Shown here: positions 4,396-59,900 of the stretch, in pieces | Layout of the letters: the number at the start of each line of letters is the position of its first letter | How positions within the stretch are numbered: the first letter of the stretch is position 1 | NCBI RefSeq assembly: GCF_910592395.1 | Contig: NC_088313.1 | Location: 746,501 to 810,500, forward strand | Direction: 5' to 3' | DNA length: 64,000 bases | Origin: Lineus longissimus | Lineage: Eukaryota; Nemertea; Pilidiophora; Heteronemertea; Lineidae | Notes under the pieces: generated by a model | The model's database searches: none | Seen by the model: the letters and a program-made list of their open reading frames with translations, nothing else | What the model was told of the DNA's origin: nothing | Made by a program: the position numbers and the translations under genes

Positions 4396-5925
4396 TTCGG
4401 CGTGGTTGTGACTTCCTCATCTCTCTCACCATGTTGACAACTTGGCAGAGCAGCCAAGACTGATTTGGCCTGGCTGTGACTATCTCATCTCTCTCATGTT
4501 GTCAACACGGTGGAGCAGCCAGGACTATTTCGGTCTGGCTATGACCGTTTCATCTCTCTTATCATGCTGTCAACACAGTGGGGCAGCCAGGACTGATTCG
4601 GCGTGGTTGTGACTTCCTCGTCTCTCTCACCATGTTGACAACTTGGCAGAGCAGCCAAGACTGATTTGACCTGGCTGTGACTTCCTCATCTCTCTCTGTG
4701 ACTGCGTCATCTCTCTAGCCATGTTGACAACTTGGCAGAGCAGCCAGGACTGACTCGCCTGGCTGTGACTGTCTCATCTCTCTCACCATATTAACAACTA
4801 GGCAGTGCGGCAAAGACTGATATGGCCTGGCTGTGACCGTCTCATCTCACTCATCATGTTGTCCACACGGTGGAGCAGCCAGGTCAGATTCGGTCTGGCT
4901 GTGACTGCCTCATCTCTCTCACCATGTTGACAAATTGGCAGAGCAGCCAAGACTGATTTGGCCTGGCTGTGACTGTCTCATCTCTCTCATCATGTTGTCA
5001 ACACGGTGGAGCAGCCAGGACTGATTCGGCCTGTCTGTGACTTCCTCATCTCTCTCACCATGTTGACAACTAAGCAGAGCAGCCAAGACTGATTTGGCCT
5101 GGCTGTGACTGTCTCATCTCTCTCACCATAATTATGGTCAACACGGTGGAGCAGCCAGAACTGATTCGACCTGGCTGTGACTGTCTCATCTCTCTCGCCA
5201 TATTAACAACTAGGCAGTGCGGCGAAGATTGATGCGGCCTGGCTGTGACTGTCTCATCACTCGCATCATGTTGTCAGCACGGTGGAGCAGCCAGGATTGA
5301 TTCGGCCTGGCTGTGACTTCCTCACCTCTCTCATCATGTCGTCAGCACAGTGGAGCAGCCAGGATTGATTCGGCCTGGCTGTGACTTCCTCATCTCTCTC
5401 ATCATGTTGTCAACACGGTGGAGCAGCCAGGACTGATTCGGCCTGGCTGTGACTGCCTCATCTCTCTCACCATGTTGACAACTTGGCAGAGCAGCCAAGA
5501 CTGATTTGGCCTGGCTGTGACTGTCTCATCTCTCTCACCATAATTATTGTCAACACGGTGGAGCAGCCAGAACTGATTCGGCCTGGCTCTGACTGTCTCA
5601 TCTCTCTCGCCTTATTAACAACTAGGCAGTGCGGCGAAGATTGATGCGGCCTGGCTGTGACTGTCTCATCACTCGCATCATGTTGTCAACGCGGTGGAGC
5701 AGCCAGGACTGATTCGGCCTGGTTGTGACTTCCTCATCTCTCTCATCATGTTGTCAACACGGTGGAGCAGCCAGGACTGATTCGGCCTGGCTGTGACTTC
5801 CTCATCTCTCTCACCATGTTGACAACTTGGCAGAGCAGCCAAGACGTTTTTTGCCTGGCTGTGACTGTCTCATCTCTCTCATCATGTTGTCAGCACGATG
5901 GAGGAGCCAGGACTGTCAAACAGTT
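4331..5925. repeat. 68-bp satellite array, about 23 diverged units
   Basis: The unit reads roughly GTGACTGTCTCATCTCTCTC, ATCATGTTGTCAACACGGTG, GAGCAGCCAGGACTGATTCG, GCCTGGCT. Two subtypes intermix, one with CAACACGGTGGAGCAGCC and one with CAACTTGGCAGAGCAGCC, with local order suggesting higher-order duplication. The first unit overlaps the 3' end of the retroelement fragment, so the monomer probably arose from that tail. Confidence 0.85.
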
Positions 5926-6007: not shown

Positions 6008-6357
6008 ACCGTCTTCGGATGCGCATCCGATATGCCACGAGATCCTTCACCGTCAATTCCCTTACCGTCTTCGGATGCGCATCCGATATGCCACGAGATC
6101 CTTTACCGTCAATTTCTTTACCGTCATCGGATGTGCATCCGATATGCCACGAGATCCTTCACCGTCAATTCCCTTACCGTCTTCGGATGCGCATCCGATA
6201 TGCCACGAGATCCTTTACCGTCAATTTCTTTACCGTCATCGGATGCGCATCCGATATGCCATGAGATCCTTTACCGTCAATTTCTTTACCGTTATCGGAT
6301 GCGCATCCGATATGCCACGAGATTTTTTGTAACTTCACCGTCAATTCCTATACCGTC
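6008..6357. repeat. 56-bp palindrome-bearing satellite, about 6 copies
   Basis: A 56-bp unit repeats six times. Each contains the 14-bp palindrome CGGATGCGCATCCG, extended to 18 bp in some copies, followed by ATATGCCACGAGATCC and ACCGTCAATT. Two sub-variants (TCTTCGG and TCATCGG) alternate, so the array partly grew as 112-bp dimers. An AT run (about 5975-6005) precedes it. Confidence 0.88.
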
Positions 6358-8133
6358 ATGGATGCCACCAGCTTTGTTCGCGTTGTAAAGGTTTCGGGGA
6401 TACGACCAATGCATGCGAGCACCGTCGGCGGAACCCCAAACCGCCCTCTCGATCTATCCGTAAGGACAAGCCACTCTCGTGACCGTCACAGTTACGGACT
6501 CCGGACCTCCAGACTTTAGAGACCGAGCTTTTCTTTACCTTACAATTACTGTATACTCGGCGCCTCACTTATATGTGTTGTTTTTTTCACATACATTGTT
6601 CTCGTGGTTTACGGAAAAGTAGGCCTAAAATGTTATAGTGTCTAAAAACAATATTCAGTTAATGGAATTACACTTTTTTCCATTACTGCTTGCTTGATAT
6701 TGCCCTAACAGCTTTTTCATGAATCAATTTTGAGCATTATGTTTACAACGTAGTTATTATAGCACGAATTATGAGTCTAAAATGCCAAATACTTGCAACT
6801 ATTATGTTAATCACTGAAATCTTGGTGTACAAATTGCTCGCTATAAGCTAGGTTATTGCGCCCCTTAACCAACGTACTGACAGCGCTACCTCCCCGGAAC
6901 TCAAACTTTAACGCGAGTTAATTGTAATCTTACTCTCTATATACCAAAGTGATTTACCTAGGAATACAGTTGCACTTCACTGAAAACTAATGATGTGTTA
7001 ATGAGTTCAATGAATCCTTCGATTCCTTTGGTTTTCTTGGCGAACTGACGTCCGACAATCAATGACCCGTTGACGTGTACCTGCAATACGCCATTGCCGT
7101 AGTGTGTAAACAGATATATTTTTGGACGAAACTCAGCCCCTCACAAACTTTGGTCCATTTCGCCAATGATGACACCACAGCACTTTAAGCTGTAGCAGCG
7201 CTAAGCAAGAGTCAAGACAAATGTCCGCTGCAAGCCGCTGCTGGACCAACCCCCTCGCCCGCCCCCCATCATGATATCAGAGGCCTGGCTGAGCCCTGTG
7301 ATTTAGCCAAATTCAATATGATTCTTTTCTACTGTGATGTTAAGGCCCTTGTGTCATGCAGCGTATTCGGTAGCACCGGTACACAACTTATGTTAAACCG
7401 CGACGTCTGCTGCAATTCAAATTGCATATGACGCCAACGGAATTGTGACGACTTGTTTCTCAAATCTTTTAGTGAACAGTGATCACGGGCTGTGGGAATT
7501 GCGAAGGGATGGTGTAGAGTATCGCCACAACAATGTTGATATGATCACTCGTCGTTTCAGCGGGCATGACTTGGTACATCCAGTAACCCAGCAAAAAGTA
7601 GCCTCGGTACAGCCAGTCAAGTAGCAACAAATCGCAAAAGGGGATCCTTGTCTGACTGGTGGCTGGACCACATGGTAGGTCACCATCAAATAAGGGAGTG
7701 GATCCAGCACAGCTGGATAGAGGGGGCCCCGTTGAGGGCGAAGCCTGAATATGGTGAGGGTTCGCCCTCACAATCACATGAAAGCGCAGTAGGCGCTCAC
7801 CCACGAAGGGAGGTCTGGGGGTCTCCAGCAGGAAAATTTTGAAACTGAGATGCTCTCAGATGCGTTTCCCAAGTGTCTGAGAGACGATGTTTACTCGTTA
7901 ATTCACTGCAAAGAAATGAATAACGAATAAGCCCCCTAGGTTTTCTTCTTTGGGTTGTGAGGAGAATATTTCAAATCTTTTGAACAGCAGTGTCTAACCT
8001 ACAACGCCATCAATGATTTTCACTGTGCTCATGTTTGTTTTGTATTATTTTAACTGGAAATGGAAGGGTAGGGAATTTTTCTATCAAAACCCATTTACTT
8101 CTTATTTCAAGTGTTTTTGTTTTCACTGTTTCA
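6358..8133. other. Spacer upstream of TCERG1; one 9-bp-stem hairpin, otherwise nothing recognised
   Basis: No gene is supported. GAGGGCGAA (7734-7742) and TTCGCCCTC (7761-7769) form a perfect 9-bp stem with an 18-nt loop. It could be a transposon remnant. The TCERG1 transcription start may lie in the right part of this stretch or just beyond it. Confidence 0.45.
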
Positions 8134-8333: not shown

Positions 8334-10333
8334 ATGGCGGAAGATCGTGAAAACCGAGAACATGATGAAGAAGCTTCAAGATCACGATATGACGGTCCTA
8401 GAGGCCCACCACCTCCTCCTTATAGGGGACCAAGAGGACCAGGACCTCGAGGACCTCGGTAACTATTGCAATTCAACTTGGACCTTTAGGTTTTGCCGTA
8501 TTTCTTGGTAGACTTGGGCATATTTCTCTCGATTTTCGCCGACCGCGGACCGGCTTCTTTGACTTTTGCATGCATGCATTGGATGGAGAAAGCAGTGCAT
8601 TCACTGGGATGTTTGCCTGCACTTCATAAATGCTGAATGCATTACGCTTACCATTAAAAGATCGAACTGAAGGAATCAGTTTAGGAGGTGCATTTTTGTT
8701 GCATTTTTCAGGTTAGATTTGTCGATTTGTCTGTACCGACCAATTGATATAAATGAAATACAGGTGTGGTCGCACGAGTCGCAGTATTTTTGCATAGGGC
8801 CTATAATTGACACCCTGCGAAAGTAAATGTCGGCCATTTTGAAACGACCCTTTTCACAGGCAACGTTTGTTTACCATGGCATAAAAGTAAAAATATACAA
8901 GCTTATTCAAGCAATTTACTTGAAGTTGTCCATGCCTTTTAATGGGTGGCGCTTACTCCCAATGCTAACACTCCCGCCAAGGCCCAAATACACTATAATA
9001 CTAGTTTGTACATGGGGGATGTTTCACTGTTAAAATGCTGCCCAATTACTTCCAATTAATAAAATAGCGGTCTTCAGGAATCTCTGTTGAATCACGTGGA
9101 CTTGTCGCCTGCTGAAATAGTCTCGGGCTAGTAGCTTTTGCTTGTGGCTAGTGCACTCTGCATTGAGGCACAGGCCCCTGAAGCCTTGTTAGCGGGAATA
9201 TCGGGCTAAACAATGGGATAAGCCAGCCTTTTCAAAGCCATCATTCGCATATCAACTACATAGGCGAATGATGACTTTGAAATGGCCTGGGATTGATAAT
9301 TGGAGTCTTATAGATGGCGTGGTGAGCAACAAATTGTTTGTTTCTCGGCGTTTTCCGGTCGTACGAGGGGTCCGAAGTGGAGCTGTCTCTCGCTTCAAAT
9401 CTGGTCCAGCGCTTGCCTACCTTTATTTTTTACTCTTCTCATAGTACTTTCCTGGCTTATCCCATTGTTTAGCCCAATAATCCCGCTAACTAGGCTTCAG
9501 GGGCCTGTGATTGAGGCTAGTCCTGGGCTAGTAGGGCAAATTTGGATTTTTCGACCCCTGATTTAAAGTTACAATAGGCCCTTCGTTGTAGGTGAAACCC
9601 ATGACTGCTCAGCGCCAAAACATACACCTACAAAAAGTGCAATATCTTTTTTTAGCGGTCTAAGACGCCAGGCAATGCCTCTCGAGCAGAAAGGCCTATT
9701 TCATCTTCCCAACAGGCCAACCCTCAGTTGTACAGAGCCTATAAGAGAACCTACCCCATCCATTAACATTGACCTTCATTATTTCTTTCTCTTCTAGTCC
9801 TCCTTATGGTGGTCCACCAAGAGGTCCTCCTAGATTTAGGGGCCCACCTCCACGTGGTCCTCCTCCTGGTCCCCCAGGCATGAGAGGACCACCCCCAGGC
9901 ATGAGAGGACCCCCACCAGGTTAGTTGGCTGTTTATATTGACTCAATAGAATCATTTAGCAATCTGATATTAGAGACTGAAGACCAATCTTATCATAATC
10001 ATAGATAAAAAGTTTCTTTTGTTTCAGTTTCAGTTTGAGCTTGAAGAAATTTCCATGGCACAAATGTTCATTTTAAAAAAGTGTAGTGATATGGGGTCCT
10101 GAAATTCTGAATTCATCACACTGTTTCTGTAGTTTCTATTTCTTAAATTTCATCATTCAGGTATGAGGGGACCTCCACCAAGGCCATTTGGACGTCCACC
10201 CTTTGATCCTGCCTATGGGCCACCACCAGGCATGCCCCCACCAGGAATGCCACCACCAGGCATGCCCCCACCACCTGGTATGCCACCACCACCTGGAATG
10301 CCACCACCACCAGGCATGCCCCCACCGGGTGGA
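8334..10333 (+). CDS. TCERG1: TCERG1 exons 1-3: N-terminal acidic/RG and proline-rich segment
   Basis: Exon 1 begins [20 protein letters not shown] and passes into RG/GP repeats. Exons 2 and 3 encode runs of PPPGM and RGPP up to residue 140. Such segments are low-complexity ligands for WW and SH3 domains and are typical of this family. Exon 3 has tandem GMPPPP units from a near-repetitive DNA stretch (10220-10330), a likely length-polymorphic site. Confidence 0.9.
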
Positions 10334-13139
10334 GTAAGTACCAATGATATCTTAAAGCAACAACTAACCAGAATTTGTGGGCCTAAGTAATAGAAATGTG
10401 GTCTTTGGTATGAAGGAAAAGGTCTTATTTTGAGAATGTCAGGCAGTCGATAAAAGCTCAAATTGCTGATTTTATTTAAGATTAAGAAATAGAATCTTCA
10501 TTCTGCCAGATCTCGATCGGTCAAAGGTAACCTTTTCATTTCTAGTTTAACATTGATTAGCCCACAGACTGTTGAACAGAGGAAACTTATCTCTTGTAAA
10601 CTTTCTACTTTCTTCCAGCGTCCTCCAATGGGTATGCCCCCACCAGGTATCCCACCTCCCAACTTTAATGTGCCGCCACCAGGCTACCAAGCAGGACCTA
10701 GTTCAGGTGCTCCAGCATCTGGATCGGGCCTCTCCCTGGATGGTGAAATATGGGTTGAGAACAAGTCGGCAGATGGCAAGGTGAGAGTCCATATTCGGGG
10801 TGATAGCTTTGTTTCGATGTAAGCTGTTAATGGGCGGTTGCCACATGTTTAGATGTTTTATTGTTATTTCTATTTTCCAGTGCTACTATTACCATTTGAA
10901 AACGAGGGAATCAAAGTGGACCAAGCCGGAGAATGTTAAGATCATCACACAGGAAGAGGTGGATAATCTTGCCAAGGCCCAGGCCCAGGGAGGACCGGCA
11001 GCCACAAGTGCTTCACCATCAACTGCTGCTCAGGCAGCTGTAGCTCATGGTGAGTAAATTAGTAGTGTTGGCTTTGACTTGTTTCTTGAAGTGTCTCTCA
11101 ATCTGTGTGTCAATACTTGAATATTATTTGGAAAGATCTCACAAGATCTGGCTGATTGCGGGGAAGAAAGTATCAAAACATTTGTTCTTATTTGCCTGAT
11201 GCAGTGCCTCCTTCCTTCAGATTTGTACCATTGAGAGAATCATCTTTGACTTGGCCTGCTTTCCCTGCTGTTGACCTGTCATGAATATAGTTTATTTGAG
11301 ATGTCTACCTTGCTCCTTGCAACAGACCTGCTCCAAGTTAGGATAATTTCTGTATCTTTGCAGCCCAAGCCGCCAGCCAGGCCATACAGAACCAGGGGCA
11401 GCCAGCAGAGGGCACACAAGCACAGACAAATGCTGCTGAGCCAGGCTCAGAGTCTCCACAGCAACAGCAGCAGATGCCTCCCCAGAACAACGCACAAAAA
11501 CCTCCATTCCCATTCGCGGGATTTCCTCCTGGTAAGATGAATGAAAATATGAATGTGTAATAAATTTGCAATACTGTCTGAAAAGTTAATCTGTTTGTTA
11601 ATTTTGAAGATTACCTGTTTGATTATCGACTCATGATTACATTTGGTGCATCATGTCTAAAACTACACTGCTTTAGTGAAAGTATTTTATTTCTATGTTG
11701 ATTCAACCGCTCGATGATGATGAACATTCGCAATTCATGAAAAAGTCATGTTTACAACAAATTGTGCTGTGGTTCTGAATAATAGCGGTTATGTCATGTT
11801 GAGTGTTGAGACGGTCAAATCACAACTGTATCCGATCAAAACTTGAAATCTTCTGATACAAAACTGGTCGCTGAACAAAATGAATTTGTTCTCAACCTGT
11901 AAAACCTGGGTCTAGTTTGTAAGGGGTGTACAAAATGGTGATAAACTTTCAGGTATGATGCCACCAGGTTTCAATCCTAACATGATGCCACCGCCAGGCT
12001 TCAACCCAAACATGCCACCACCAATGGGTATGGGAGGCCCCCCGGACAAGATGCCAAATCAAGCTGGAGACGACTCACAGGCAGCGCAGCCGACGGAGAA
12101 CGCTGCTTCTAGTCCCAAGCAGAATGAGCCACCAGTTGCTGTCTTCCAGTCAGCAGCCAAACCTCAGGCGCCTGTTAAACCAGCAGAGGTGGCAGAGTGG
12201 TTCGAGTATAAGACGGGTGATGGGCGGCCGTACTATTACAATGTGAAGTCGCTTGAGACGACGTGGGAAAAGCCAAAATGTCTGTCAGACTGGGAAGGTA
12301 AGAATTGTCTGATACTTACCAGTACCGGTAATGATATTGATTAACAGTAAACACAATGCACCTATGCAAACTCTCTTTATAAAGAGCATTGTGACAAAAG
12401 TACCGCTCTTATAATGATGAACATTCGCAATTCATGAAAAAGTCATGTTTACAACAAATTGTGCTGTGGTTCTGAATAAGGAGCTGTTCTGTGAAAGCCT
12501 TTTAAGAATCTTACTCTTTCTTTCCCATAGAGAGAATCTTAAGACGGATTTCTATTGAAATTAGAACCGAATTTAGAAGATTTTTGCGTCACAGTTCACA
12601 ATTTCCGTTGCAGAGACAATGGCCAAGTTCAACCAGACGCAGAATCAGACGACAGCGCCATCACCCACGCCAGTTCAGCAGATCCAAGCCAAGGTCCAAG
12701 CCCAGGCTGCAGCCATACACGCACAGCAACAACAACAAATACAACAACAACAACAACAACAACAGATACAACAACAACAGCAGATGCAACAACAGATGCA
12801 GCCAGTGATGCATAAAGAGGAAGGGAACAGGATGAACGGGGATGTGATGGCAGAGGAACCGATGGAGGCAGAGGAGGCCCCTGAAGAAAAGAGAGAAGAG
12901 GTACGCATTGAAAATGACGGAACTATTACTCATTTGACATGAGAACTGAACGTTATGTTAGGAGTGTCTTCAGTCATTTTTGACATGTTTGGATATCGAA
13001 CAAGTTGATGAGTGAAGTGAGGCTCTTATGATGATAAACATTCGCAATTCATGAATAAATCATGTTTACAACTAATTGTGCTGTGGTTAGCTCACCTCTT
13101 AGCAGAGGTGAGCTTATCCCATACCGTGGCGTCTGTCGT

Positions 13140-13195
<56 letters not shown>

Positions 13196-14123
13196 CGTCG
13201 TCCGTTAGCAGGGCACGTTTCGTAACTGTTAGAGCTATTGAGTTGAAACTTGGTACACATGTACCCTTATGTAATGACACCTGGGAGACCAAGTTTCGGT
13301 CCGATTCGTTTCATGGTTTGGCCACCAGGGGGCCAAACGTTAAAAGTGAAAATATGCAATATCTCCCTTAATAGTAGTCGGGAAATTTTGAAAAAAATAT
13401 GGTAGGTACTTCTAGCAAAGGTGCATCATATATCCTCCGGGTTTTTGATTTGACCTCCTTTTCAAGGTCACAGAGGTCAAATGGTGTAAATTAGCCGTTA
13501 GGATGTAATGATGGCACGTTTCTAAACTGCAATGACTATTGATACCAAATTTGGTACACATTTACCCCTTAGTCAGGTGATCTCAGGGACCGAAGTTTGG
13601 TCCAATATGATTCACCACTTGACCACCAGGGGGCAAAATCCAAAAACCTTAAAAATGTGATTATTCCTTAACTTCTTGCTCGATTGCCACCAATTTGATA
13701 TCATGGGTACATCTAACCACCATACAGTATATGTCACACAGGTTTTTAATTTGACCTTCTTGTCAAGGTCACAGAGGTCAAATGGCGTAAATTGGCCGTC
13801 AGGCCGTAACTATGGCACGTTTCTTAACTGCAATGACTATTGATCACAAATTAAGTACACATGTACCCCTTGGTCAGGTGATCTCAGGTACCGAAGTTTG
13901 GTGCGATCTGATTTGCCGTTTGGCCTCCAGGGAGGGGGCCAAATCCTAAATTCTTCAAAATGCCATTATTCCTGACTTGCCCGATTGGCACCAATTTTAT
14001 ATCATAGGTAGATCTAATTCTAACAACCATTCAATGTGTCACCCGGGTCTTCTTTGATTTGACCTACTTTTTAGCTCACCTCTTAGCAGAGGTGAGCTTA
14101 CCCCATACCGTGGCGTCCGTCGT

Positions 14124-14197
<74 letters not shown>

Positions 14198-17100
14198 CGT
14201 CGTCCGTTAGCAGGGCACGTTTCGTAACTGTTAGAGCTATTGAGCTGAAACTTGGTACACATGTACCCTTATGTAATGACACCTTGGAGACCAAGTTTCG
14301 GTCCGATTCGTTTCATGGTTTGGCCACCAGGGGGCCAAACGTTAAAAGTGAAAATATGCAATATCTCCCTTAATAGTAGTCGGGAAATTTTGAAAAAAAT
14401 ATGGTAGGTACTTCTAGCAAAGGTGCATCATATATCCTCCGGGTTTTTGATTTGACCTCCTTTTCAAGGTCACAGAGGTCAAATGGTGTAAATTGGCCGT
14501 TAGGATGTAACGATGGCACGTTTCTAAACTGCAATGACTATTGATACCAAATTTGGTACACATTTACCCCTTAGTCAGGTGATCTCAGGGACCGAAGTTT
14601 GGTCCAATATGATTCACCACTTGACCACCAGGGGGCAAAATCCAAAAACCTTAAAAATGTGATTATTCCTTAACTTCTTGCCCGATTGCCACCAATTTGA
14701 TATCATGGGTACATCTAACCACCATACAGTATATGTCACACAGGTTTTTAATTTGACCTTCTTGTCAAGGTCACAGAGGTCAAATGGCAAAAATTTGCCG
14801 TCAGGCCGTAACTATGGCACGTTTCTGAACTGCAATGACTATTGATCACAAATTAAGTACACATGTACCCCTTGGTGAGGTGATCTCAGGTACCGAAGTT
14901 TGGTGCGATCTGATTTGCCGTTTGGCCTCCAGGGAGGGGGCCAAATCCTAAATTCTTCAAAATGCCATTATTCCTAGTAATGACTTGCCCGATTGGCACC
15001 AATTTTATATCATAGGTACATCTAATTCTAACAACCATTCAATGTGTCACCAGGGTCTTCTTTGATTTGACCTACTTTTCAAGGTCACAGAGGTCGAATG
15101 TACTGTAAATTGGCCATTTTGGGGAAATTGTAATTGCTTGGACCTACATCAAACCTAACACTACATGACACAATACCATGCTCTTTATCCATCTTTCCTC
15201 CACATGAGGTGAGCACAATGGCCCTGGCCATTTTCAAGGTCACAGAGGTCGAATGTACTGTAAATTGGCCATTTTGGGAAAATTGTAATTGCTTGGACCT
15301 ACATCAAACCTAACACTACATGACACAATACCATGCTCTTTATCCATCTTTCCTCCACATGAGGTGAGCACAATGGCCCTGGCCATTTCATTCTGAATAA
15401 GGAGTGGTAATGTCCAGACTCCTCTGCAACCTTGCTGTATTGGGGCAGCTAACTTGTCTACAGTGATTGTTCAGTCTCCCCTCTGAGTCTAATGGCTCTC
15501 AAGTATTCACTGTTCTCTCTTCCAGGAGAAAGAAGAAGAAGAGGAAGAGATGACAGAGGAACAGAAGGCAGCTGAGAGAGCCAAGCCAGTCTCCAGTACC
15601 CCTGTGCCAGGCACACCCTGGTAGGTAGCAACACCACTTCATTAATCAGTCTGCAGAATAAATAAATATCATCTACTGGACCCTAGATTTCTTAGGAGTT
15701 CTCAATCTGCTGAAGTTCTCCAGCTTGATAGTTGAACCTGATCATATCACATAATCTTTGTTTGGTTTTAACACCCGTGTCAACATTAAATTCGAGAAGG
15801 TTCTTTGAATAAATACGCTGCATGTTGTATGGAAAACAGTACTGCACTTATAATGATGAACATTCGCAATTCATGAATAACTCATGTTTACAACTAATTG
15901 TGCTGTGGTTCTGAATAAGGTGCGTATTGTCCCAGTGTATGGTATAAGGACTAGATCACGTCTCTATCCTTGATATAATTTTCTCATTTTAAGGTGTGTT
16001 GTTTGGACTGGTGATGGCCGCGTGTTCTTCTTCAACCCTAGTCAGCAGAAGTCAGTGTGGGAAAGACCCGAGGATCTCGTGGGACGTTCAGATGTTACCA
16101 AGATGGTCGAGACGGTTCCAGATGTTCTGGAAAACAAAGGTGAGTTATAATACTAAGCCTCTTCAGCAGGAAGTGACTGAGTGTAAGCATCACAGCTGTC
16201 TCATCATGAGACAGGATGCCGTGAATCTGGGGTATCCACAGAATGCATCTAACTGCTGTATTTCAAAAGGACATACTGGTTTCTGTATGTTGATTCATAG
16301 AAAAGACAACCGCTCGATGATGATGAACATTCGCAATTCATGAATAAGTCATGTTTACAACAAATTGTGCTGTGGTTCTGAATAAGTAGCGGTTCAGTCA
16401 CACTAGGGAAGGTGGCGCCCTGAGCCGGGTTTCCTCGAATGTTTGCGCTCTCTAAGACAATATTGGTGCTAGTGTCGCTCCCTGGATGGAATGTTTCTCC
16501 TTTCATCAAGCACCCATGGTGACAACTCTTTTTATTTTTTTGCAGGTCTGAAGAAAAAAGCCGAAGAAGAGGTGCTAGAAGATGAGCCAAAACCCAAAAA
16601 GAAGAAGTAAGTCCACTAATATTTCCCAATTTTTTCCTAAACATGCATTGACTGGCAGAATAGACTCAACATCATCAAATTGAATGTTTGATGGCCACTG
16701 TGATTGTTTTTTATCTGAATATACAAAATACACAGTCGGGCTATGCTACATTGGAAGCTAGTGACTTGAAGTTGACTAAAAGTATCAATTTTCATGCTCT
16801 AGGATTGAAGAAGAAGTGAAGAAAGAAGAACCAGTGGTACAAAAGAAAGATCAGCGAACGATGATCGACGCTGGCAAGGAGGCGGCCATTGAGGCTGAGG
16901 TGAAGGCGGCGAGGGAAAGGGCGGTCGTCCCACTCGAGATCAGGATGAAGCAATTTAGAGATATGCTGGCTGAGAAAGAGGTACGTTTCAAATTGAGGAG
17001 TGAATTGTTTTCGATTCCATTGTATGTTTTGGCTGTCTTTGTTTCCATTGTTGGCCTTGTACAGGATATAGGTTTCCGTGGAGGGGATGGGGGCACAAGA

Positions 17101-20100
17101 TGTTGCACAGACTGGAACTTTTATGTGAGTGTTTTAGGTCAGTATATTATTGGTACATTGGGTCGTGTCGTAAAGAAGGATTTCAGCAATGGAAAGCAGA
17201 ATTCTGAGAAGGGACATTTTATGTATTTGTGAGTATACAGTAAGTTTTCAGCTATCTTTGTTGCATTTCTTTCTTCTTTGATCATTTTCTTCCCAATGGG
17301 TAATGAAAGGATTCTCAGTTTAAACCAGCACAGCTGGAAAAGGAAAACCTCTGAAATGGTATGTACAGTGTGATACTGGTGTCCAGGACTATGTGCCGGT
17401 TTCTGGATCTACATGGTTCAGCTTGAAGCTCAACACCTGATGAACTGAGGGGACTTTCAGAAGAACTTGGCCCGGTCGTTCAGCACAAGTGTTGTCACTA
17501 ATGCTGGTGTTAACGTGGCTATAAGTCTATCTAAAATTTGTTTTGAATAACCTGAAGTGTAGTTTGTGATTATGGTGATCTGGAATAGTCTGATATGGTG
17601 GTAGGTTTGACGTTCTAACTTGAGATTTTGAGCGAGTCATCAATCGTTGACATGCAGAAGCCTGATGAGCTTGACAGGAGGACAAAAGTATGGCTTGATC
17701 CGGCATTCTTGTTGAGTGATCCCTTTCAAGGTCTGGTAAGTTTCACATGGTAGGAATGCTTCTCTGAATACCTTCTTCTACCTGTACTGCTTGTCAAGCC
17801 CAACTAACTTTGCATTATATCTTGTAAATAGAGTGTTTCTAAAGTGGTAGCATTCTGATATTAGAGTAAAAAGTTTCCTGGGGAGATGTTCGTAATGAAT
17901 TCTACCCTTGGAATCATCCATGTCGGCTGTGATTTGCTCTTTGATACATCCCAAGATAATAACATGCACACTTTGATTAATTTGGTGTGATATGTGAATT
18001 AATTCATTTGCTCATTGCCATTTCTGATTCCTTGACTAATCAGTATTTTTATGATGATAATGATGTTGCTTTGTTCCTTGCGCGATGAAATTATTGTTAT
18101 AAAATTGTGATCTCTCGATTGAATTGATCAGAGACTTTGGAAGATGTTGATTTTGAGTCGTTGGATTCCTCTTGGAAGCTGAGATCAGAATTATTTGATA
18201 TGATATAGGATTACTGCATACCATACTCTTGATGCTTGCCAAATAGAATGAATCTAATTCATGTTCCGTGTTTGGAATGAAAAGTAGAATTTCTGGTCTG
18301 GACAGACCTTGATGTTGATGTACTTATGTTGATTTCTAATGCGTTGGTTGGAGTCCCACAGGGTGACATATCGAGGCCAGGTTTATCTAGAATGTTCTTG
18401 TGTTCTACTTATTCATCTGATTTTGTTGGTGTTAGCTGCTTAGGTATGCTGGAGAAATTACAGAGTGCCATGCGGACTTTTGGAGCGGAATTGGTAATCT
18501 TCTGTCGAACATTTTACTTAACTGGAGATTTTGATGGATTTTGAAAAGAACAGTCTTTCTCAAGATGATGGATGTAGGTTTCGTGAATTGGAGTTCGTGA
18601 CACAAGGAAGTTGTCCTCGACTGCACGTTGCTGTTGCAAAGTTTTGAACAAGGAAATATGAGTTACATTTAGTTGACTGCTAATTTAATTGCTTATGTCT
18701 ACACTTACCTCTCGCCAAAACCAAGGTTCGTGGTGTAGGTGACTGAAATATGCATTCAAAGATGAAGTTGGTGGAAAATCAGACGAGTTTGCACTGGTAA
18801 GGCATGGCAGCCTCCTTTGAATACCATGGTGTTGCAAAGTGGCAGGAATGCTCCTTTTCCTTTTCTGGCACAAAAACATAGTTTGGCATCGAAGTTTCTG
18901 TTATAATCGTCATATTTTTCCAAAACCTCTCCCCTCATCTTACTTGATCGTCTTTTCCAGGTGTCGGCATTCTCTACCTGGGAAAAAGAGCTGCACAAGA
19001 TCGTGTTTGATCCGCGTTACCTTCTGCTGACGTCGAAGGAACGCAAGCAGGTGTTTGAGCACTACGTGAAGGAGCGAGCTGAGGAGGAGAGGCGAGAGCG
19101 CAAGAATAAGCTGAGGGAGAAGAAGGACCAGTTCAGGGCGCTGATGGAAGAGGTCAAACTTCATGGGAAGTAAGTCGCATGCTTTGTGAGTCGTTGTTGG
19201 AGAATCATTCGGCAGCAGAAGGCCAGATGTTCTGACAGGCTATAACACTCATCTCTGGATGAACTGGCTTGGATACTTCACTCTTGGAATGGCATTCCTC
19301 TGCCATGGTCAAGATTCACTTGGCCTATATGTCAAGATGACCTGCTGTGAGATCATTGGATGACACCCAATTTGAGATAAAAGTTGCCTTCGTTGGAGAA
19401 AACAGAGCTCATGTTGGAATTCTTTTCTTTCCAGGTCATCGTTCAGCGACTTTGCCTCCAAATATGGTAAGGATGAACGGTTCAAGGGTATCGAGAAGAT
19501 GCGTGAACGGGAAAATCTGTTTGCTGACTACTGCTCGGAGCTGAGGCGACGGGAAAAAGAGGAGAAGGCCAACCAGAAAGAAAAGGTAAACATCGATTCA
19601 GTAATGCAACTATTTAAACGCGACCATGAACCCAGTTGGAAAACTCACACGCGTTGGTTGATACCTTTTGCTTCATTTCATGTTTTTGAAGAAAGCTGGT
19701 GATCTAAGGATCTTATCTCTGTGGTTCTGTGAAAGTCGAACACGGATGATCTGGATACTAGTTCAGAAATCATCCTGAGAACATGAGATGTGGAGGAATC
19801 TTGTGAGTGACTTCTGCTCCACCTGGAGTAACCAGGTTTATGACAATTTTGAGAAAGTATTATCAAAACAGCAACTGTTGTACGCTCCTACATCTTCCTT
19901 AGTGCAAGGTTGATATTGCTAGACAAAAAACGAAAAAGTTGTTGAAAATGGGCTCTCGAAAAAACTCGAATATTTGTTGACTGCACGAGTTGTGAGTTTT
20001 CCATCCAGGAGTTATCCATAGTTTCAAGTTCAAGGATCAAATAAAGTTTGAAAGCAGCAAGGAATCAGTACCTTACTTCAGTTCCGAATTGACAAGGCTG

Positions 20101-41000: not shown

Positions 41001-44000
41001 TCTCTGTCACTATCTGTAAGGATATGACACAATCATATGACCTGTGTGGCCTGCTATGACCTAGTGTGTCACCTGTTTGTATCTGTGAGATATTTCAATA
41101 CCTAGTTCATTAAGTTTCTATTTGTTCCAGATCTGTCGGCTTCTGCTTCATATTCTCCTGGTTGTTGATGCTACTGACCAGCATCACTTTCTTGATTGGT
41201 GGAAACATGGAGAAGCTAGCCTGTGAACCCTTGATGGACCCTTCCTATAAAATCTTCAAGGAGGTGAGATGAAAGAATTTTAGAAACATGCTGTGTTTAG
41301 CAGTCATGATCATGCTTCAGAGAACAGGGCCAGAAACTTGAAATCATGTCCATGGGCCGAGTGCTCTCATTAAAACTAAAATGACAGCCATTCTCTAATC
41401 TTCTTCTTTTGCGTTCTCAAGATATGAGTTTGAATGTGTAGCACCCCAGTTATGCACCAAACTATGCTTCTGTCTTCAGCTCTCTGTGTCCATTGTTGGG
41501 GATTAGGTAGGAGGGAGTCAGGGAGTTTTCAGACGTAGATGGGCCTGCACACTGCACTTAGGGTTCCAATCTACTCCAAGGTTTTAAATCAGAGCTTTCC
41601 TTCTCCTAGACAAGTTGCCTGTCAAGGTGAAGGCCAGTCTACACCAGATACCTTGAATATTTATAACTTTCATCTGCAGCTGATCGATAAGCCAGACGGC
41701 CCTTTGGGAGAAGGATATTTTCTTGGCGACATGCTACTTCAAGATAAAACAGCAAACTTGACAATGCATGGAATTCTCGAGTGAGTATCGGGACTTTCCA
41801 CATGTTCCGTCATCGCCGAGTTGATGAAAACAACGTAGTTCCTGACTTGATGTTATTTTTCACTTGTTGTTCAGTTGAAAGAACTGAAGGTGATAATGCC
41901 AAGTTGTACACATCATTACTCCACAATGCCGTTTACCCCCAAGGGCGAGCGGTCATAGTCCATCAAATCAGATTCTAGTTTTGTCTCTGTTGTTTTCAGT
42001 GGTTGCAAGAATGCAGGATCTGCTTATAACGTCCTCATGCTAAGCCACATGTTCAACCTGACTGAACTCACCGACTACAAGAGTGTAAGTTTGCTAACTA
42101 TTCCATCCTTACTTTGTCTAGTGTTGCAAGCAAACGTCAAAATGGAAAACTAAGTACTTCACAGACATTAGCATGATATTCTAACTGTCAGAAGCTAAGA
42201 GTGGGAATTGCTTTGTGACAAGAATTGATTAAGTTCTGATGGACTTGGCTTGGTCTTGCGTGAGAGACATGCTTTGTCTATTTGGTGTCTGTCTTGGTCT
42301 TACGGTGCGGGAAAGGTTTGAACGTAGCAAAAGTGATAAGGACAGAGGGGGAAGTGTTGGCCGTGACGCTGCTCATATGATGATAAGCAGTTACAAGATT
42401 CAAATTAACCGTTACTTGAATCTTTTTTCAGAAAATGGATATTGAGAAGCAGATGAAAGATTCTAACAACATCGACCTGTCGTCTGTGAAAGTGATGACG
42501 CCATCACTAAAACAAACCCTGGAGGACTTCCAAGCTGCTCTCAATATCGACTTCGCCACAATGATAACTGAGGTTTGTGAAAGATATAGTCTGACACACC
42601 TTGATTGTAATGTAGCCTTGATTTACAGCGATTTTATTGACAGTCTGCTACTCTGTGTCACACAGCAGCATCAACTTCATTAAACAGGTTTCACATTTAC
42701 GTGTATGTGCCTTGCTAACTGATTTCATATCTTATTAAGCCGAGCACGAGGTGTTGTTTAGGTCACAAGGATTCAGTGCTGTCAGGCTTTACCTCCATCA
42801 TGACTTTCTTCAGCTCTCCAAAGATGCCGCCAAGACCGGACTCACAGCCTATGCTGATGGCCTCATAGCGATTGCTAACTTGCCTTCCATGGCGAGCTCT
42901 CCTGCGGTAAATGAACTGATTACAGAGGCCGCTGCTTTGAAGAACATTGACAATAACCAGGTTCCAAAAGTGAACACAGCAAAGGTAAGACCCAATACTG
43001 TGAACAGCTTTATAGTCATGGGCATTTTATGTTTGAACATTTTGTGAATAACTCCTAAATAAATACTGTGTGTGGACATTTTATGGTCTACTGTGCTGAT
43101 TTGAGGAATTTTTTCTGCGGTTTTACTGATTTTGGTCGTCTTGAAATTTACCTCTTCAATTCATGCTAAGATATAACCCAAATGGCTATGAAAATGAAAT
43201 ATCGGTTGTTTTGTGCCAGAAGACTTTGCGTCTGCTGTGATTACTCTACAGGAGGGTGCCTAAGTTTCTTTATGCGTTTGAAAAAAGGGGATCAAGAACA
43301 CTGAGATAAAGACTCAGGTGGATTGTGAGAAGCAACTGATGGGCCAAGGGATTCCAATTACTGGTCATGAATAATTATGATCAAATCTTTGTTTTCAGGC
43401 TGCGTTGATTGTTGATCTACAAGCGTTACAAACTCAAGCTCCAAACGTCCAGGTAATCCCTCAGACTCATCACTTGCCTGATCAATGATGCTGAGAAAAC
43501 ACTTTCTGAGTTTCCGTTGGCACATTGAAAGTGAACAATGAGTTGTGTTTCTTCTATTCAGTGAAATAAGACTACTGCTCGAGTGTGTGATCTGAGTAAC
43601 CAGCGTCGCCATAAATTTCCATGCTGTGTTTTGCATACTTTTACTGTTTTCAGGCCGATATCACGGCTGTAACGACAGCACTGAATGATCTCGATACGTA
43701 CATCACAAATTCAGCACCGGACCTCATCAACACTGTAAGTCAACTAATAGGAGTCCCTTATAAGACTACTCTTTACCAGAGGGTCAATATTAACATACGA
43801 CTTGTCACTTGTCTCATTCACAACAAATGAGGAGTGATCTGGAAGTAATAGTCATTCAATGGCACTTGCTTTCGTGGCCATAAAGACATCTTTGATGTTA
43901 GGCAAGTGTTTTTTATACGTTGTTTCGGTTATCCGCCGCTTACGAAAATTACAAAAAAAAAAAAATTTTTTTTTATTGCCTCTCAGAAATTTTACCAGGA

Positions 44001-53998: not shown

Positions 53999-56900
53999 GT
54001 GAGTTGATATGATTTGAGCAAATTGGTAAAACAAAACTCAGCTGAGTCCTCCAAGGCCATGCAATCGATAACTAGGATGTGAGATGTCTGTTTTTAGATG
54101 CATTTACTTCTTTTCCTCATGTAAAAAGTAGATGTAGCCCAGTGGCAGTGGTAAGCGCGATGAGGTGGCCCAGTGGCAGTGTGGTAAGCGTGATGAGGTG
54201 GCCCAGTGGCAGTGTGGTAAGCGTGATGAGGTGGCCCAGTGGCAGTGTGGTAAGCGTGATGAAGTGGCCCAGTGGCAGTGTGGTAAGCGTGACGAGGTGG
54301 CCCAGTGGCAGTGTGGTAAGCGTGATGAGGTGGCCCAGTGGCAGTGTGGTAAGCGTGATGAGGTGGCCCAGTGGCAGTGTGGTAAGCGTGATGAGGTGAC
54401 CCAGTGGCAGTGTGGTAAGCGTGATGAGGTGGCCCAGTGGCAGTGTGGTAAGCATGATGAGGTGGCCCAGTGGCAGTGTGGTAAGCGTGATGAGGTGGCC
54501 CAGTGGCAGTGTGGTAAGCATGATGATGTGGCCCAGTGGCAGTGTGGTAAGCGTGATGAGGTGGCCCAGTGGCAGTGTGGTAAGCGTGATGAGGTGACCC
54601 AGTGGCAGTGTGGTAAGCGTGATGAGGTGGCCCAGTGGCAGTGTGGTAAGCATGATGAGGTGGCCCAGTGGCAGTGTGGTAAGCGTGATGAGGTGGCCCA
54701 GTGGCAGTGTGGTAAGCGTGATGAAGTGGCCCAGTGGCAGTGTGGTAAGCGTGATGAGGTGGCCCAGTGGCAGTGTGGTAAGCGTGATGAGGTGGTCCAG
54801 TGGCAGTGTGGTAAGCGTGATGAGGTGGCCCAGTGGCAGTGTGGTAAGCGTGATGACGTGTTTTTTGGATCTGCAGAAAAGAAGTGGATGTTACCTTAAA
54901 ATGTGAGTTATCATACGTCATGCGCTAACCCATCAACTTTTCATTTTTACAGCTGGTGATGTACGGTATCGGTTTCGGAATCTGTTTTGCTATTGGTATA
55001 CTCTTCGTCATCATCATGCCGATCGTCGGATGCTGTTTCTGCTGCTGTCGTCTCTGCGGTAATTGTGGCGGGAAGAAAATACACAAGCCAGAAAATATCA
55101 GCAATTGTCATCGAATTGCGTTTACAGTTCTTGGGTTTGTGATGGCGACTTTCATCATGTGAGTAGTACTATCATGGCACGGTTTCACCCCAGATAAACT
55201 CTCAAAGGATTTGAGAAGACAGATATGTACCTTCAAAAAAGTCAAGCAAATCGCAATATTTACGAGTTTTTAGACCTTATGGTTTAGATTTGTGATGAAA
55301 ATCAGCTTTGCATATGATCCAATAAAAATTAGGTGGCTATATAGATAACTTAATCTTCTCCATTTTGCCAGGATTCCTGCTGCCTGCTCATTAGTGGCCA
55401 ACAATCAAACCACAAAGACTCTGAATAATGTGGGAACAGTGGCTGTGAACAATATCAACGATTTGGAGACTTTCCTGGGCAATGTGATCTTGGTAGGTAC
55501 CTGGACGCTCCCCAAAGAGTAATGCTTTTTCATATTGTACTAACCCGAGTGGACTGCCTAAAGGTTTTAAGTTTTATGTTGTGTCAAAAAAATTATAAAT
55601 CATTCGAGGTTTTGAAAGGAGCCTTGTTGAGGCCGAGACAGTCATCTAAAATGTATAGTGAATACATAATGGATGACTGTCTTGCCTTGCCTTGGGCTGT
55701 AAAGCTCATTATTAGACACATGACCTAATTCATCAGTTGGGTGTAAACCTTTTCTGATTCAATCACAAATGAGATATTGGCACCCTGTGGTGTCTTTTCA
55801 TTACCCGCTAATTTGATCTCAGTGTGGAGAAGGCCCCAAGATCAATATTTTTTTTATCATGACAACCGGGAAGTTCGTCTTGCAATGGTGATTCCAATTG
55901 AGACTAAAACGAATATCATTTTAGTGAGACATGATTATAAAGAGGGCTTTGACATGGATGGCTCCATGTAGGGGAATTGATCATGAAATTTTTCATCACA
56001 ATGTGTTACATTTTAATAGGATGATTCATTTGAAATGTCTGAGGCGAATCCAGGACTCGGCAAGTTTTAGTGGGTCAGCCCTCACTCGACCTTGTTGGAA
56101 GCACAGGGAGGTGTTCCAGGTATCCTGGATACCGCCAGAGCTCAGATAGGGTTGGATTGTGATTTTTGTGTATGCGTATTCATGCTTATCTATTTGGCTT
56201 TCAAAATATGTATGGTCTTTAGGATATATCTCAAAAAGTTTTGCCATAAAAGGAAAAAAGGAAATCTCCTGAAGGGAAAATTTATCATAAAGGCTAACTT
56301 ATATTGGCTTAGCCTTAGATTCTGAAACCTTTGGTATACCTTGTAGAAATTATTAAATGATTGCCAGGTTGATAATATTTCCATAATGCAGTATTATATT
56401 ATTTTACTCTGGAATTCTATTATACTATGGTCTTGATATGATTTCAGGAAGTCAATCATGCCTCTCTGACAAACTACAACTTCACTGCAAGCGTCCTCAA
56501 GCGAGACTTGGACAGTAAGTGCAAATGCATGATTTCATGTACAGTGGAACCCCGGTAACACGACCACTCATGGGACCGAGGTTGAATGGTTGCGTTACCA
56601 TGGTGGTCGCGTTAGTGACGTTGAAAATCCGGGGACAAAATGCATGATTAGGTTTTCCCGCCAAAATTGTTGAACTTATTCAAAATTCTGAAAAATTTTC
56701 AAAGTTTATAAGTCGGCGCAGATCAGTCAGCGAGATTCGGCCTGATGAACATACTTCCAGTAGGACCTGCTATAGGGTTCCAATCAGAAACTCGTGTATC
56801 ACTTGATGATGTATCAACAGCTTTGATACCAACTCAGGCATTTCAGTTCCAAGAATGTTCTTCATTGAAACAAGAAGTTTTAAGATTGCCCTACATTGAT

Positions 56901-59900
56901 ATTCCTCGAATCCTTTCAGATATCGGCGTGATTCTCGGCGAGAAACTTCGAGATGAAATGATAAAGAAGTTTAAGATTGATGTCATGTTCCAGAAGATTA
57001 TTGCCCTCGATACCTGTAAGTAGTCATAATGTTACAATGCAGCATCCGCTCATCACCGCTGCTATAACTTTCTATATTACCGTGTCTTCTAGTCATGGTA
57101 TTCTAACCATAAAGCTAACAATGTAACTTCAAGTTCTTTTATACCAACAAGTATATACTTGATACCAAGTATAAAGCCATGACAATTTAAATTTTATTTA
57201 TCATTTATTATAACTTTTATCAAGTAAAGGTGTAATACAATCCATCGTGTTTCTTCCAGCAATGCAAAAGCTGAATGGCGCCTTCAATTCGGCTGCTACC
57301 CAACAAACAGCATTCAAAACTGCATCGGATGACTTGAAGGCAAAGTTAGATACTGAGCGAGGCAAAGTCGTTGCCACACAGGGTGTAACGGGTTGTTCAG
57401 GCGTAGTATCATGCAATACCTATCCGACAGCTACATTGGATATTGACTCGAACCCTGCTTTGGTAGGTATAACTATTCCTCTATCATGAGGTTAAAGATG
57501 TTTGGAAATGTTTTCGCATGGCTCTCATTTCTCAAGTTTCTCTTCAAATTTGGTGAAAGGAAACCTCCCTCAAATGAATATTGACATTTAAATCATTCCA
57601 ATCTTCAATCAACTGCGACAGTTCCTGAAAATGAGGACTTTTGCAGGATAGGTTTCCCATGCCAAAGTCAACTATCAGTAGCCTTATTTCCTCTGGTAGC
57701 TTCTATCCTGGTATAAATGTAAAATGTGAGGCCCCACATATTGGGAGAGGATCATCGATGTCTCAAATCATGGACTCTGTATATTGATTTTCATCCAGCG
57801 AATGTATAGGATATGATCAGGCATCATATTGTTTTAATTGTGTTGATTCTCTTTTGAAGATACCAAACATAGATACCACAGATATAAACGCTGCTGCATC
57901 AAAGAATCTCACAGATGAGTTTGAAAAAGTAGGTATCATGAGCATGTTCTCTTTTTGCTATGAAAGATTTCCTTTCAATTCTGGCTTGAGCACAGGATTA
58001 TAGATCCGACTTAGTTCCTCTAGCTTTGTCTTACCTTGGCTGATCTCTCACAGTCTCACAGTGACATTGACCCGGCCTCCAGGGATTGTGACCCGGGCTT
58101 GAAATAACCCTTGAAAATTGTCTTTTGAAGCATGAAATTTTCAACTAACTGTTAACTTAAAAACTATTACAACACTAATAGACTCCCTATCCAGAAAGTT
58201 GAAATCTCAAGAAGTGACAAGACCGTGATGTGAATGGTGCAAGCAAGGTGTTTTATTTTCATGATGTTGGCAAATAACCTTTATTCGATGAACATTCCTT
58301 ACCACCTTACCACCTTACCACCTTACCACCTTACCACGTTACCACCTTTCCACCTTACCACCTTGCCACGTTACCACCTTACCACCTTACCACCTTGCCA
58401 CCTTACCACCTTACCACCTTACCACCTTACCACCTTACCACCTTACCACCTTTCCACCTTTCCACCTTACCACCTTACCACCTTACCACCTTACCCCGTT
58501 ACCACCTTACCACATTACCACGTTACCACCTTACCACCTTACCACCTTACCACCTTACCACCTTACCACCTTTCCACCTTTCCACCTTACCACCTTACCA
58601 CCTTACCCCGTTACCACCTTACCACGTTACCACCTTACCACGTTACCACCTTACCACGTTACCACCTTACCACGTTACCACCTTACCACGTTACCACCTT
58701 ACCACGTTACCACCTTCCCACCTTGCCACCTTACCACCTTAACACCTTACCGCATTACCACCTTACCACCTTACCACCTTACCACGTTACCACCTCACCA
58801 CGTTACCATGTTACCACCTTACCACCTTACCACCTTACCCCCTTACCACATTACCACGTTACCACATTACCGCCTTACCACCTGCTCTATTTGCAGTCAA
58901 CAAAGAGTTTCTATGATATCCCAACAACGATTCAGACTGATACAGCTACAGTGAGAGCGGGTGAGCTGCTTAATTTATGCTATAACTTTCTTTCAAACAT
59001 TTTGTGTTTCTGTTAGTGTGTTGTCATGATTTGTTATGCATGAAGTGCAGATGACGTCATCATCGACATGATACTGGATAGCGAACACATGGTGATGAGC
59101 CAAGCACTGCCCTCTTTGGCATTGTATAGGAAGTAACCCCGATTTGCAAACATAAAAATCACCCAAAAATATTGAGAAAACACACCGTCACATGTTTTTG
59201 ATATAGTGATGCTTTTCCTGTCATCAGGAGTGACCATGGGTTGGCTGCAAGTGATGTCAAGTGCTTTTTGTTTCTTTAAAAATATCTTCATATTCCAGAC
59301 GCAATCCAAAAAATTGATTCCTTTTACTCGACCATCAACAATGCGATGAAGCAGGTCAGCGGACTCACAAACAACGTAAGTCATTTACACTTTCAAAAAC
59401 GTTTACATCAAACCATAAGTTGTCTTTATGATATTCAAAGCATTGGAATGATGCACCTGATAACGAGGGAAGTCTCCAGTCAAGAACTACATGTACTTCA
59501 AACATGGCCTGCAAAATATCTGAATTTTAAATTGAAATAGTAAAATGTCCAGGTTTACCCATCTTGACCCTCAAGCCTTGAATCCCCTCCCCTGACCCAG
59601 ACTCTGTTACACCAACTAACTCTGATGGTTCAGAATGAGGTTTACCATACATGTCCATGAAATGAAATGAAATGTTTTTTTGATATTCTCCAGTTGGGTG
59701 TGCTGACTGACGCAAAGAAAATGATTACGGAATACACTGGTCAGATTGGGCCATATGACAAGTACCGGTAAGTACTGCTCACTTATCAAATCATGCACAA
59801 TTGGTTATGTCAAGTTCACCTTGCCCTCAACTGAAGGAAGAAGGGCATTTCACAGTCTCTAAAATTTGCCTTTGACGTATTCATGGAGTTACATGTTGGG

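What the first reader, a model, noticed from the sequence alone, without database searches (positions are those of the whole stretch)
11705..16394. A box C/D snoRNA-like family, one copy in each of five consecutive TCERG1 introns
Introns 6, 7, 8, 9 and 10 each hold exactly one copy of an 80-87 nt sequence, all in the sense strand. Each has box C ATGATGA, box D CTGA and a terminal stem next to the boxes. The core is nearly invariant, while the stems vary and stay paired: AACCGCT/AGCGGTT in copies 1 and 5, GCTCTT/AAGGAGC in copy 2, GCTCTT/AAGGAGT in copy 3, GCACTT/AAGGTGC in copy 4. The compensatory change between copies 2 and 4 argues for selection on an RNA fold. The 5' segment AACATTCGCAATT resembles the 18S-pairing domain of U14 (SNORD14), which in vertebrates is also multicopy in introns of one host gene (HSPA8). 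A TCERG1-hosted U14-like cluster is not something I know to be described.
Basis: partly seen in the sequence, partly recalled or inferred. Interest (0 to 1): 0.9.

Follow-up and report, generated by a model that had tools for sequence, protein, structure and literature searches.

The report
Intronic C/D snoRNA family, ribbon worm
A ribbon worm genome carries a small-nucleolar-RNA-like element, repeated one per intron in two unrelated genes; it is a good example of a known kind of RNA gene, not the U14 relative that was proposed.

Summary
Five related same-strand elements sit one each in five consecutive TCERG1 introns. Four are intact; the third is split between guide and box D by a 2.3 kb insertion. 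The genome is the nemertean Lineus longissimus. A genome search found three more copies, also sense, one each in three lamin introns, and no others (8 of 8 first-look candidates scored; a lower bound). Across the eight, 51 of 63 core columns are invariant, while the host introns share no other stretch. This is best read as an intron-encoded box C/D snoRNA family. U14 fails: RF00016 never matched here, and true U14 lies on another contig (4 matches, 2 over cut-off) with other guides. No Rfam family reaches its cut-off in the window. The D-box guide pairs 8-9 nt with the 28S motif AACCACAGC; D+5 then points to an adenosine that, by my numbering, is methylated in Arabidopsis (Am2362). That target is only suggestive: about 10% of random 6-kb sequences hold the 8-mer, and Lineus rRNA was not retrieved. 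Ordinary in kind.

The parts
11705..11790 (+). Copy T1, TCERG1 intron 11532-11952: stem AACCGCT/AGCGGTT, box C ATGATGA 11717-11723 (overlapping alternative at 11714), box D CTGA 11775-11778
12402..12487 (+). Copy T2, intron 12298-12613: box C 12414-12420, box D 12472-12475, stem GCTCTTAT / ATAAGGAGC
13018..13088 (+). Copy T3, 5' part (box C aligned as ATGATAA at 13031-13037; guide regions present), intron 12901-15525
13089..15390 (.). 2302-bp repeat-rich insertion that splits copy T3 between guide and box D; TT on both sides
15391..15409 (+). Copy T3, 3' part (box D CTGA 15393-15396 and 3' stem arm)
15840..15926 (+). Copy T4, intron 15621-15993: box C 15853-15859, box D 15911-15914, stem GCACTTAT / ATAAGGTGC
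16308..16394 (+). Copy T5, intron 16140-16545: stem AACCGCT/AGCGGTT, box C 16320-16326, box D 16378-16381
11364..16980 (+). Host gene segment used here: seven TCERG1 exons and the six introns between them
   Evidence: splice sites and open frame (boundaries set by hand to keep the frame); Pfam; PDB

Best explanation
These are intron-encoded box C/D small nucleolar RNAs. Each TCERG1 or lamin pre-mRNA carries one unit per intron. After splicing, the debranched intron is trimmed back to the C/D core, whose k-turn (box C with box D, closed by the terminal stem) binds the core snoRNP proteins. The segment just 5' of box D (UUGUGCUGUGGU) is the likely guide. It pairs with the conserved 28S stretch AACCACAGC and, by the D+5 rule, directs 2'-O-methylation of AACCA(m)CAGC. 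Several copies in two host genes would raise dosage. Shown: sequence, boxes, stems, intron positions, copies found, conservation pattern. Inferred: expression, processing, protein binding. Tentative (about 0.4): the 28S target.
For: Box C (with one change in broken T3) and box D in all 8 copies. A terminal duplex in every copy although its sequence differs: GCUC/GAGC in T2 becomes GCAC/GUGC in T4; AACCGCU/AGCGGUU in T1 and T5; 12 bp in lamin copy L1. One unit per intron in 8 introns of two unrelated genes, 8 of 8 sense. All 28 intron pairs share one stretch, the element, 61-97 nt, and no other at E 1e-3. 51 of 63 core columns are invariant, including ATTCGCAATTCATGAA and TACAAC.AATTGTGCTGTGGT, while the base next to box D and the loop vary. 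All 7 weak Rfam matches to T5 and 8 of 9 to L1 are C/D snoRNA models. C/D scan against shuffles. A model of the 7 intact copies finds only the 8 copies in 99 kb of held Lineus sequence that includes the U14 loci. Target: 9 contiguous pairs (T copies) or 8 (lamin copies) to a printed fungal 28S sequence, plus 3 beyond one bulged U; the unbroken 11-mer ACCACAGCCAA occurs in 2-5 of 3000 random 6-kb sequences. Arabidopsis Am2362 (SnoR43.12, itself only 8 bp) and Cm2366 (SnoR37) lie 4 nt apart, as A and C do in ACCACAGC (PMC8053127 passages).
Against: No expression data were available. No Rfam family reaches its cut-off in the window; best relaxed score 20.2 bits, archaeal sR5, E 0.19; in that call copies T3 and T4 had no match, and the lamin locus had none at E up to 2. 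Folding energy of single copies is ordinary in three of four: z -0.61, -0.94, -2.26, -0.77. C' and D' are degenerate (by eye). The stem permutation test is modest (840 of 40320). Target: the 8-mer ACCACAGC occurs in 257, 308 and 295 of 3000 random 6-kb sequences at three G+C contents, and the guide finds an equally stable duplex in some register in 135, 141 and 147 of 150. A passage of PMC8053127 gives 10-14 bp for guide pairing there and calls the 8-bp SnoR43.12 case weak and less certain.
Confidence: 0.85

Rival explanations
1. Diverged U14 (SNORD14) cluster: a chaperone pairing with 18S helix 6 through ACATTCGCAATT.
For: CATTCGC matches 7 nt of the 18S site in the TCERG1 copies. U14 is multicopy in introns in chicken (HSPA8 introns 5, 6, 8), and the same table seems to list 28S-C-3358, in the stretch I propose as target, as its second site (PMC2653536 passage).
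Against: No RF00016 match to the copies. True U14 in the same genome: 4 matches of 62.2-64.1 bits on C17, 2 of 4 over the cut-off; 119 of 6983 candidates were scored. Three are printed in reverse complement; all carry CATTCGCGGTTTCCACC and CTTGGATGT before CTGA. Against a proxy 18S (reverse complement of Lineus U14 domain A, so circular for U14 itself) U14 gives -35.7 kcal/mol, T copies -12.0, lamin copy L1 -9.4. Model R1 of this family finds nothing in the U14 loci.
Confidence: 0.03
2. Short non-autonomous transposon (SINE or MITE) that happens to sit in introns.
For: Repeated, similar copies at two loci; the gene also holds larger repeats.
Against: Only 8 copies found in 391 Mb (a lower bound by the tool's own note; a follow-up pattern search did not complete). 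8 of 8 intronic, sense, one per intron. No poly-A tail or further terminal repeat seen by eye (not searched for). Boxes and guides are the invariant part.
Confidence: 0.04
3. C/D snoRNA with a different or no rRNA target (orphan, snRNA or mRNA guide), the two conserved blocks perhaps pairing with each other (CGCAATT with AATTGTG). This shares the C/D reading and rivals only the target.
For: The blocks are complementary and RNAalifold pairs them: 13 of 14 pairs form in all 7 intact copies, one in 5 of 7. The 28S match is near chance level taken alone. Most Arabidopsis SnoR43 variants are called orphans (PMC8053127 passage).
Against: The base next to box D varies while the following guide bases do not, as expected for a guide. 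None of the 14 pairs covaries.
Confidence: 0.4
4. Conserved intronic splicing element without a stable RNA product.
For: One per intron in consecutive introns.
Against: Same unit in an unrelated gene (lamin); full box C / box D / terminal stem anatomy; distance from box D to the 3' splice site varies from 79 to 372 nt.
Confidence: 0.05

Closest known systems
SNORD53 / SNORD92 (HBII-316) of vertebrates; plant SnoR37 and SnoR43.12
   Same: C/D guides assigned to what I take to be the same short 28S/25S stretch: chicken A3356 and C3358 (PMC2653536 table passage); Arabidopsis A2362 and C2366 (PMC8053127 table passage). SnoR43.12 is also an 8-bp guide.
   Different: The predicted Lineus site is the Arabidopsis A2362 equivalent, 2 nt 5' of the vertebrate A3846 site (inferred from numbering and spacing). 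No Rfam match to such families; their sequences were not compared directly.
U15 (SNORD15) in chicken RPS3 introns 4, 5, 6
   Same: Several copies of one C/D snoRNA in consecutive introns of one host (PMC2653536 table passage).
   Different: Another target (28S A3274 in chicken) and host.
U14 (SNORD14)
   Same: Multicopy, C/D, CATTCGC near box C; intronic in HSPA8 of chicken.
   Different: Different guides; true U14 is elsewhere in Lineus.

Membership tests
Box C/D snoRNA (class) | Box C RUGAUGA near 5' end and box D CUGA near 3' end | tested here: met
   7 of 8 copies; T3 has ATGATAA in aligned register (ATGATGA 3 nt upstream) and its CTGA 2.3 kb away
Box C/D snoRNA (class) | Terminal stem closing the C/D motif | tested here: met
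   duplex in every copy, -6.4 to -18.1 kcal/mol (T3 arms taken from its two halves); permutation control 840 of 40320
Box C/D snoRNA (class) | Internal C'/D' motif | tested here: inconclusive
   only degenerate CAUGA / AUGUNUA seen by eye in the alignment
Box C/D snoRNA (class) | Intronic and sense, as usual for vertebrate snoRNA genes | tested here: met
   8 of 8
Box C/D snoRNA (class) | Guide complementarity upstream of D or D' to rRNA or snRNA | tested here: inconclusive
   8-9 bp to a printed fungal 28S primer sequence; chance control; Lineus rRNA not retrieved; snRNAs not examined
Box C/D snoRNA (class) | Stable nucleolar RNA bound by fibrillarin, Nop56, Nop58 and 15.5K | not testable with these tools
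   no reads or biochemistry
SNORD14 (U14, RF00016) | Match to the family covariance model | tested here: not met
   whole-genome RF00016 search returned 4 other loci only, 119 of 6983 candidates scored
SNORD14 (U14, RF00016) | Domain A complementary to 18S helix 6 | tested here: not met
   7 (T) or 6 (L1) contiguous pairs plus a separate 5-pair helix, versus 19 for Lineus U14, against a proxy 18S made from U14 itself
SNORD14 (U14, RF00016) | D guide for the conserved 18S C | tested here: not met
   TGTGCTGTGGTT versus CTTGGATGT before CTGA
SNORD53/SNORD92 family | Match to the Rfam model | tested here: not met
   not among matches up to E 10
SINE or MITE | High copy number, dispersed, both orientations | tested here: not met
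   8 matches, two loci, one orientation relative to host (lower bound)

The most novel reading that the evidence does not exclude
An animal C/D guide family that methylates the 28S adenosine equivalent to Arabidopsis Am2362, two nt from the vertebrate A3846 site. It would have been amplified by duplication between and within the TCERG1 and lamin genes, so that rRNA modification dosage is tied to splicing of a transcription/splicing factor gene and a nuclear-lamina gene.
Probability: 0.3. Interest if true: 0.5.

Novelty: new member of a known kind. Interest (0 to 1): 0.35.

Why it matters
It adds a snoRNA-like family without an Rfam model, in a phylum for which two full-text searches found no snoRNA study. 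It shows copying within hosts plus a copy event between two unrelated hosts, with one copy interrupted by an insertion. If the target holds, it makes the 28S AACCACAGC methylation site directly testable in an invertebrate.

Tried and rejected
Amphioxus origin (my first guess from the repeats) was dropped on the 100% lamin match to Lineus longissimus on a contig of the same length as G000:C2. U15/snR13 as the functional counterpart was considered from memory and dropped: the Map13 primer quoted in PMC5389607 (passage), read with the primers of PMC3112068, places those sites upstream of the AACCACAGC stretch (inference). D' pairing to 5.8S near G75 (SNORD96 site) was considered only from recalled sequence, is short, and is not claimed. 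Two viral-contig matches to the 17-mer core (L001, L002) are about what chance gives in such a collection (my estimate) and were not followed. Two other C/D-scan places (5342-5405 minus, 42492-42571 plus) looked by eye like tandem repeat and exon-like sequence. Two exact eukaryotic rRNA patterns found nothing in the viral contigs. Duplex energy alone does not support the target. Rfam on the lamin locus L011 as a whole gave nothing at E up to 2.

The wider own-genome search (pattern TTGTGCTGTGGTNCTGA) and the 18S and 28S family searches did not complete, so genome-wide copy number rests alone and Lineus rRNA is unknown to me. Model R1 could be run only on sequence already held.
Full report
What is there. 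Reading 11001-17400 and repeat finding show five copies of one unit on the + strand. Splice sites and an uninterrupted frame place them in five consecutive introns of one gene (boundaries set by hand after a first wrong try). That gene is TCERG1: Pfam WW_TCERG1 E 4.4e-33 and PDB TCERG1 chains, best E 6.2e-50. Introns are 421, 316, 2625, 373 and 406 nt long; the next one, 16607-16802, has no pattern match. I did not verify that these are introns 6 to 10.

Correction. Copy 3 is broken: 13089-15390 (2302 bp) lies between GGTT and CTGA, with TT on each side. The insert is made of repeats. Four intact copies therefore remain in TCERG1.

The genome. The window is G000:C6:746501-810500 of a 391 Mb assembly in 30 contigs. 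The spliced lamin peptide (347 aa) from contig C2 matches Lineus longissimus lamin Dm0-like over its whole length at 100%, on a contig of 29,188,318 bases, the length of C2. So the animal is that nemertean.

A second host. A search of that genome with copy 5 gave 8 first-look candidates, all scored: the five TCERG1 copies and three at C2:9422255-9424454. I read that locus. Splicing gives a lamin (Filament E 1.6e-33, lamin tail domain E 1.3e-18; PDB lamins). The three copies lie in three different lamin introns (6184-6692, 6914-7370, 8305-8622 of L011), all sense. By the tool's note counts are lower bounds, so distant members could be missed; the follow-up pattern search did not complete. A covariance model of the seven intact copies, run on 99 kb already held (window, L011, L012, L017, L018), finds the eight copies and nothing else at E up to 1; the seven it was built from match by construction, T3 scores 73.8 bits.

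Conservation. Of 28 intron pairs, all 28 share one stretch of 61-97 nt, the element, and no other at E 1e-3. In the 63-column core, 51 columns are invariant over eight copies (T3 joined across its insertion for this). TCERG1 copies differ from each other at 0-4 columns, lamin copies at 0-5, the clusters from each other at 7-11. Invariant blocks are ATTCGCAATTCATGAA and TACAAC.AATTGTGCTGTGGT; box C varies only in T3; the loop, the base next to box D and the stems vary. This suggests one copy event between hosts and then copying, or homogenisation, within each.

Structure. Every copy has a terminal duplex of -6.4 to -18.1 kcal/mol. Native pairing is better than most reassignments, but 840 of 40320 permutations do as well because several arms cross-pair. 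T2 to T4 shows a U-A to A-U change. Whole-unit folding is not unusual in three of four copies tested (z -0.61, -0.94, -2.26, -0.77). RNAalifold pairs the two invariant blocks, with 0 of 14 pairs covarying and one pair broken in 2 of 7 copies. A C/D scan of the window found the four intact copies and two other places; shuffles averaged 1.2.

Rfam. Nothing in the window reaches a cut-off. In 11500-16600 at E up to 10, six matches: three are sR5 at copies T1, T2 and T5 (20.2, 17.6, 16.6 bits), three lie elsewhere; T3 and T4 have none. With single copies given alone, 7 of 7 matches to T5 and 8 of 9 to lamin copy 1 are C/D snoRNA models of various organisms, none near its cut-off. This says 'C/D-like', not which family.

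Not U14. RF00016 finds four U14 matches in the same genome, all on C17, at 62.2-64.1 bits, 2 of 4 over the cut-off of 64 (119 of 6983 candidates scored). They carry CATTCGCGGTTTCCACC and CTTGGATGT before CTGA. Using the complement of that domain as proxy for Lineus 18S, U14 pairs at -35.7 kcal/mol, the TCERG1 family at -12.0 (7 plus 5 pairs) and lamin copy 1 at -9.4 (6 plus 5). The proxy is circular for U14 itself; it only shows that the family does not follow it. On the other side, a table row of PMC2653536 seems to give chicken U14 a second site at 28S C3358, in the stretch proposed below as target.

Target. The D-proximal guide pairs with AACCACAGC, printed for fungal 28S in primers of PMC3112068 (passage) and recalled as near-universal. 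TCERG1 copies give 9 contiguous pairs and lamin copies 8, with three more beyond a bulged U. D+5 is the A of AACCA. PMC8053127 (table and passages) lists Arabidopsis Am2362 (SnoR43.12, an 8-bp duplex that the authors call weak and less certain) and Cm2366 (SnoR37), spaced as A and C in ACCACAGC. PMC2653536 (table passage) lists chicken A3356 and C3358, with C3358 tied to SnoR37. That Am2362 is the A of AACCA is my inference from this spacing and from recalled sequence. PMC8522698 (passages) says that overlapping SNORD53 and SNORD92 interactions correlate with hypomethylated A3846 and C3848. Controls: 257, 308 and 295 of 3000 random 6-kb sequences hold the 8-mer; 2, 5 and 5 of 3000 hold the 11-mer ACCACAGCCAA; in 135, 141 and 147 of 150 the guide finds an equally stable duplex in some register. 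The match was chosen after the fact, and Lineus rRNA was not available. So the target is a lead.

Precedent. Chicken U14 in HSPA8 introns 5, 6, 8 and U15 in RPS3 introns 4, 5, 6, and the terms cis- and trans-duplication in the same paper (PMC2653536 passages), describe this pattern. The kind is known.

In print. Full-text searches for TCERG1 with snoRNA and host gene (two listings, titles and abstract starts seen, neither on this), Lineus longissimus with snoRNA (none) and nemertea with small nucleolar RNA (one listing, on piRNA) found no report. The library lacks most subscription papers.

Noticed in passing
L011 (G000:C2:9416001-9426000) 6245-6333, 7191-7279, 8367-8455: Three further copies of the family in three lamin introns, sense; the stem of the first is a 12-bp duplex.
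   Followed up: yes
L017 and L018 (G000:C17): True U14 of Lineus: three copies within 1.2 kb at 11720906-11722086 with no coding host obvious by eye, and one at 11302113 between exons that read like alpha-spectrin (by eye from the translation, not tested).
   Followed up: partly
window 13089-15390: 2.3 kb repeat-rich insertion with an internal ~1-kb direct duplication, GTC triplet arrays and a 155-bp tandem, flanked by TT, that breaks copy T3.
   Followed up: partly
window 54094-54921 and 58234-59016: Long repetitive open frames, unexamined.
   Followed up: no
   Followed up: partly
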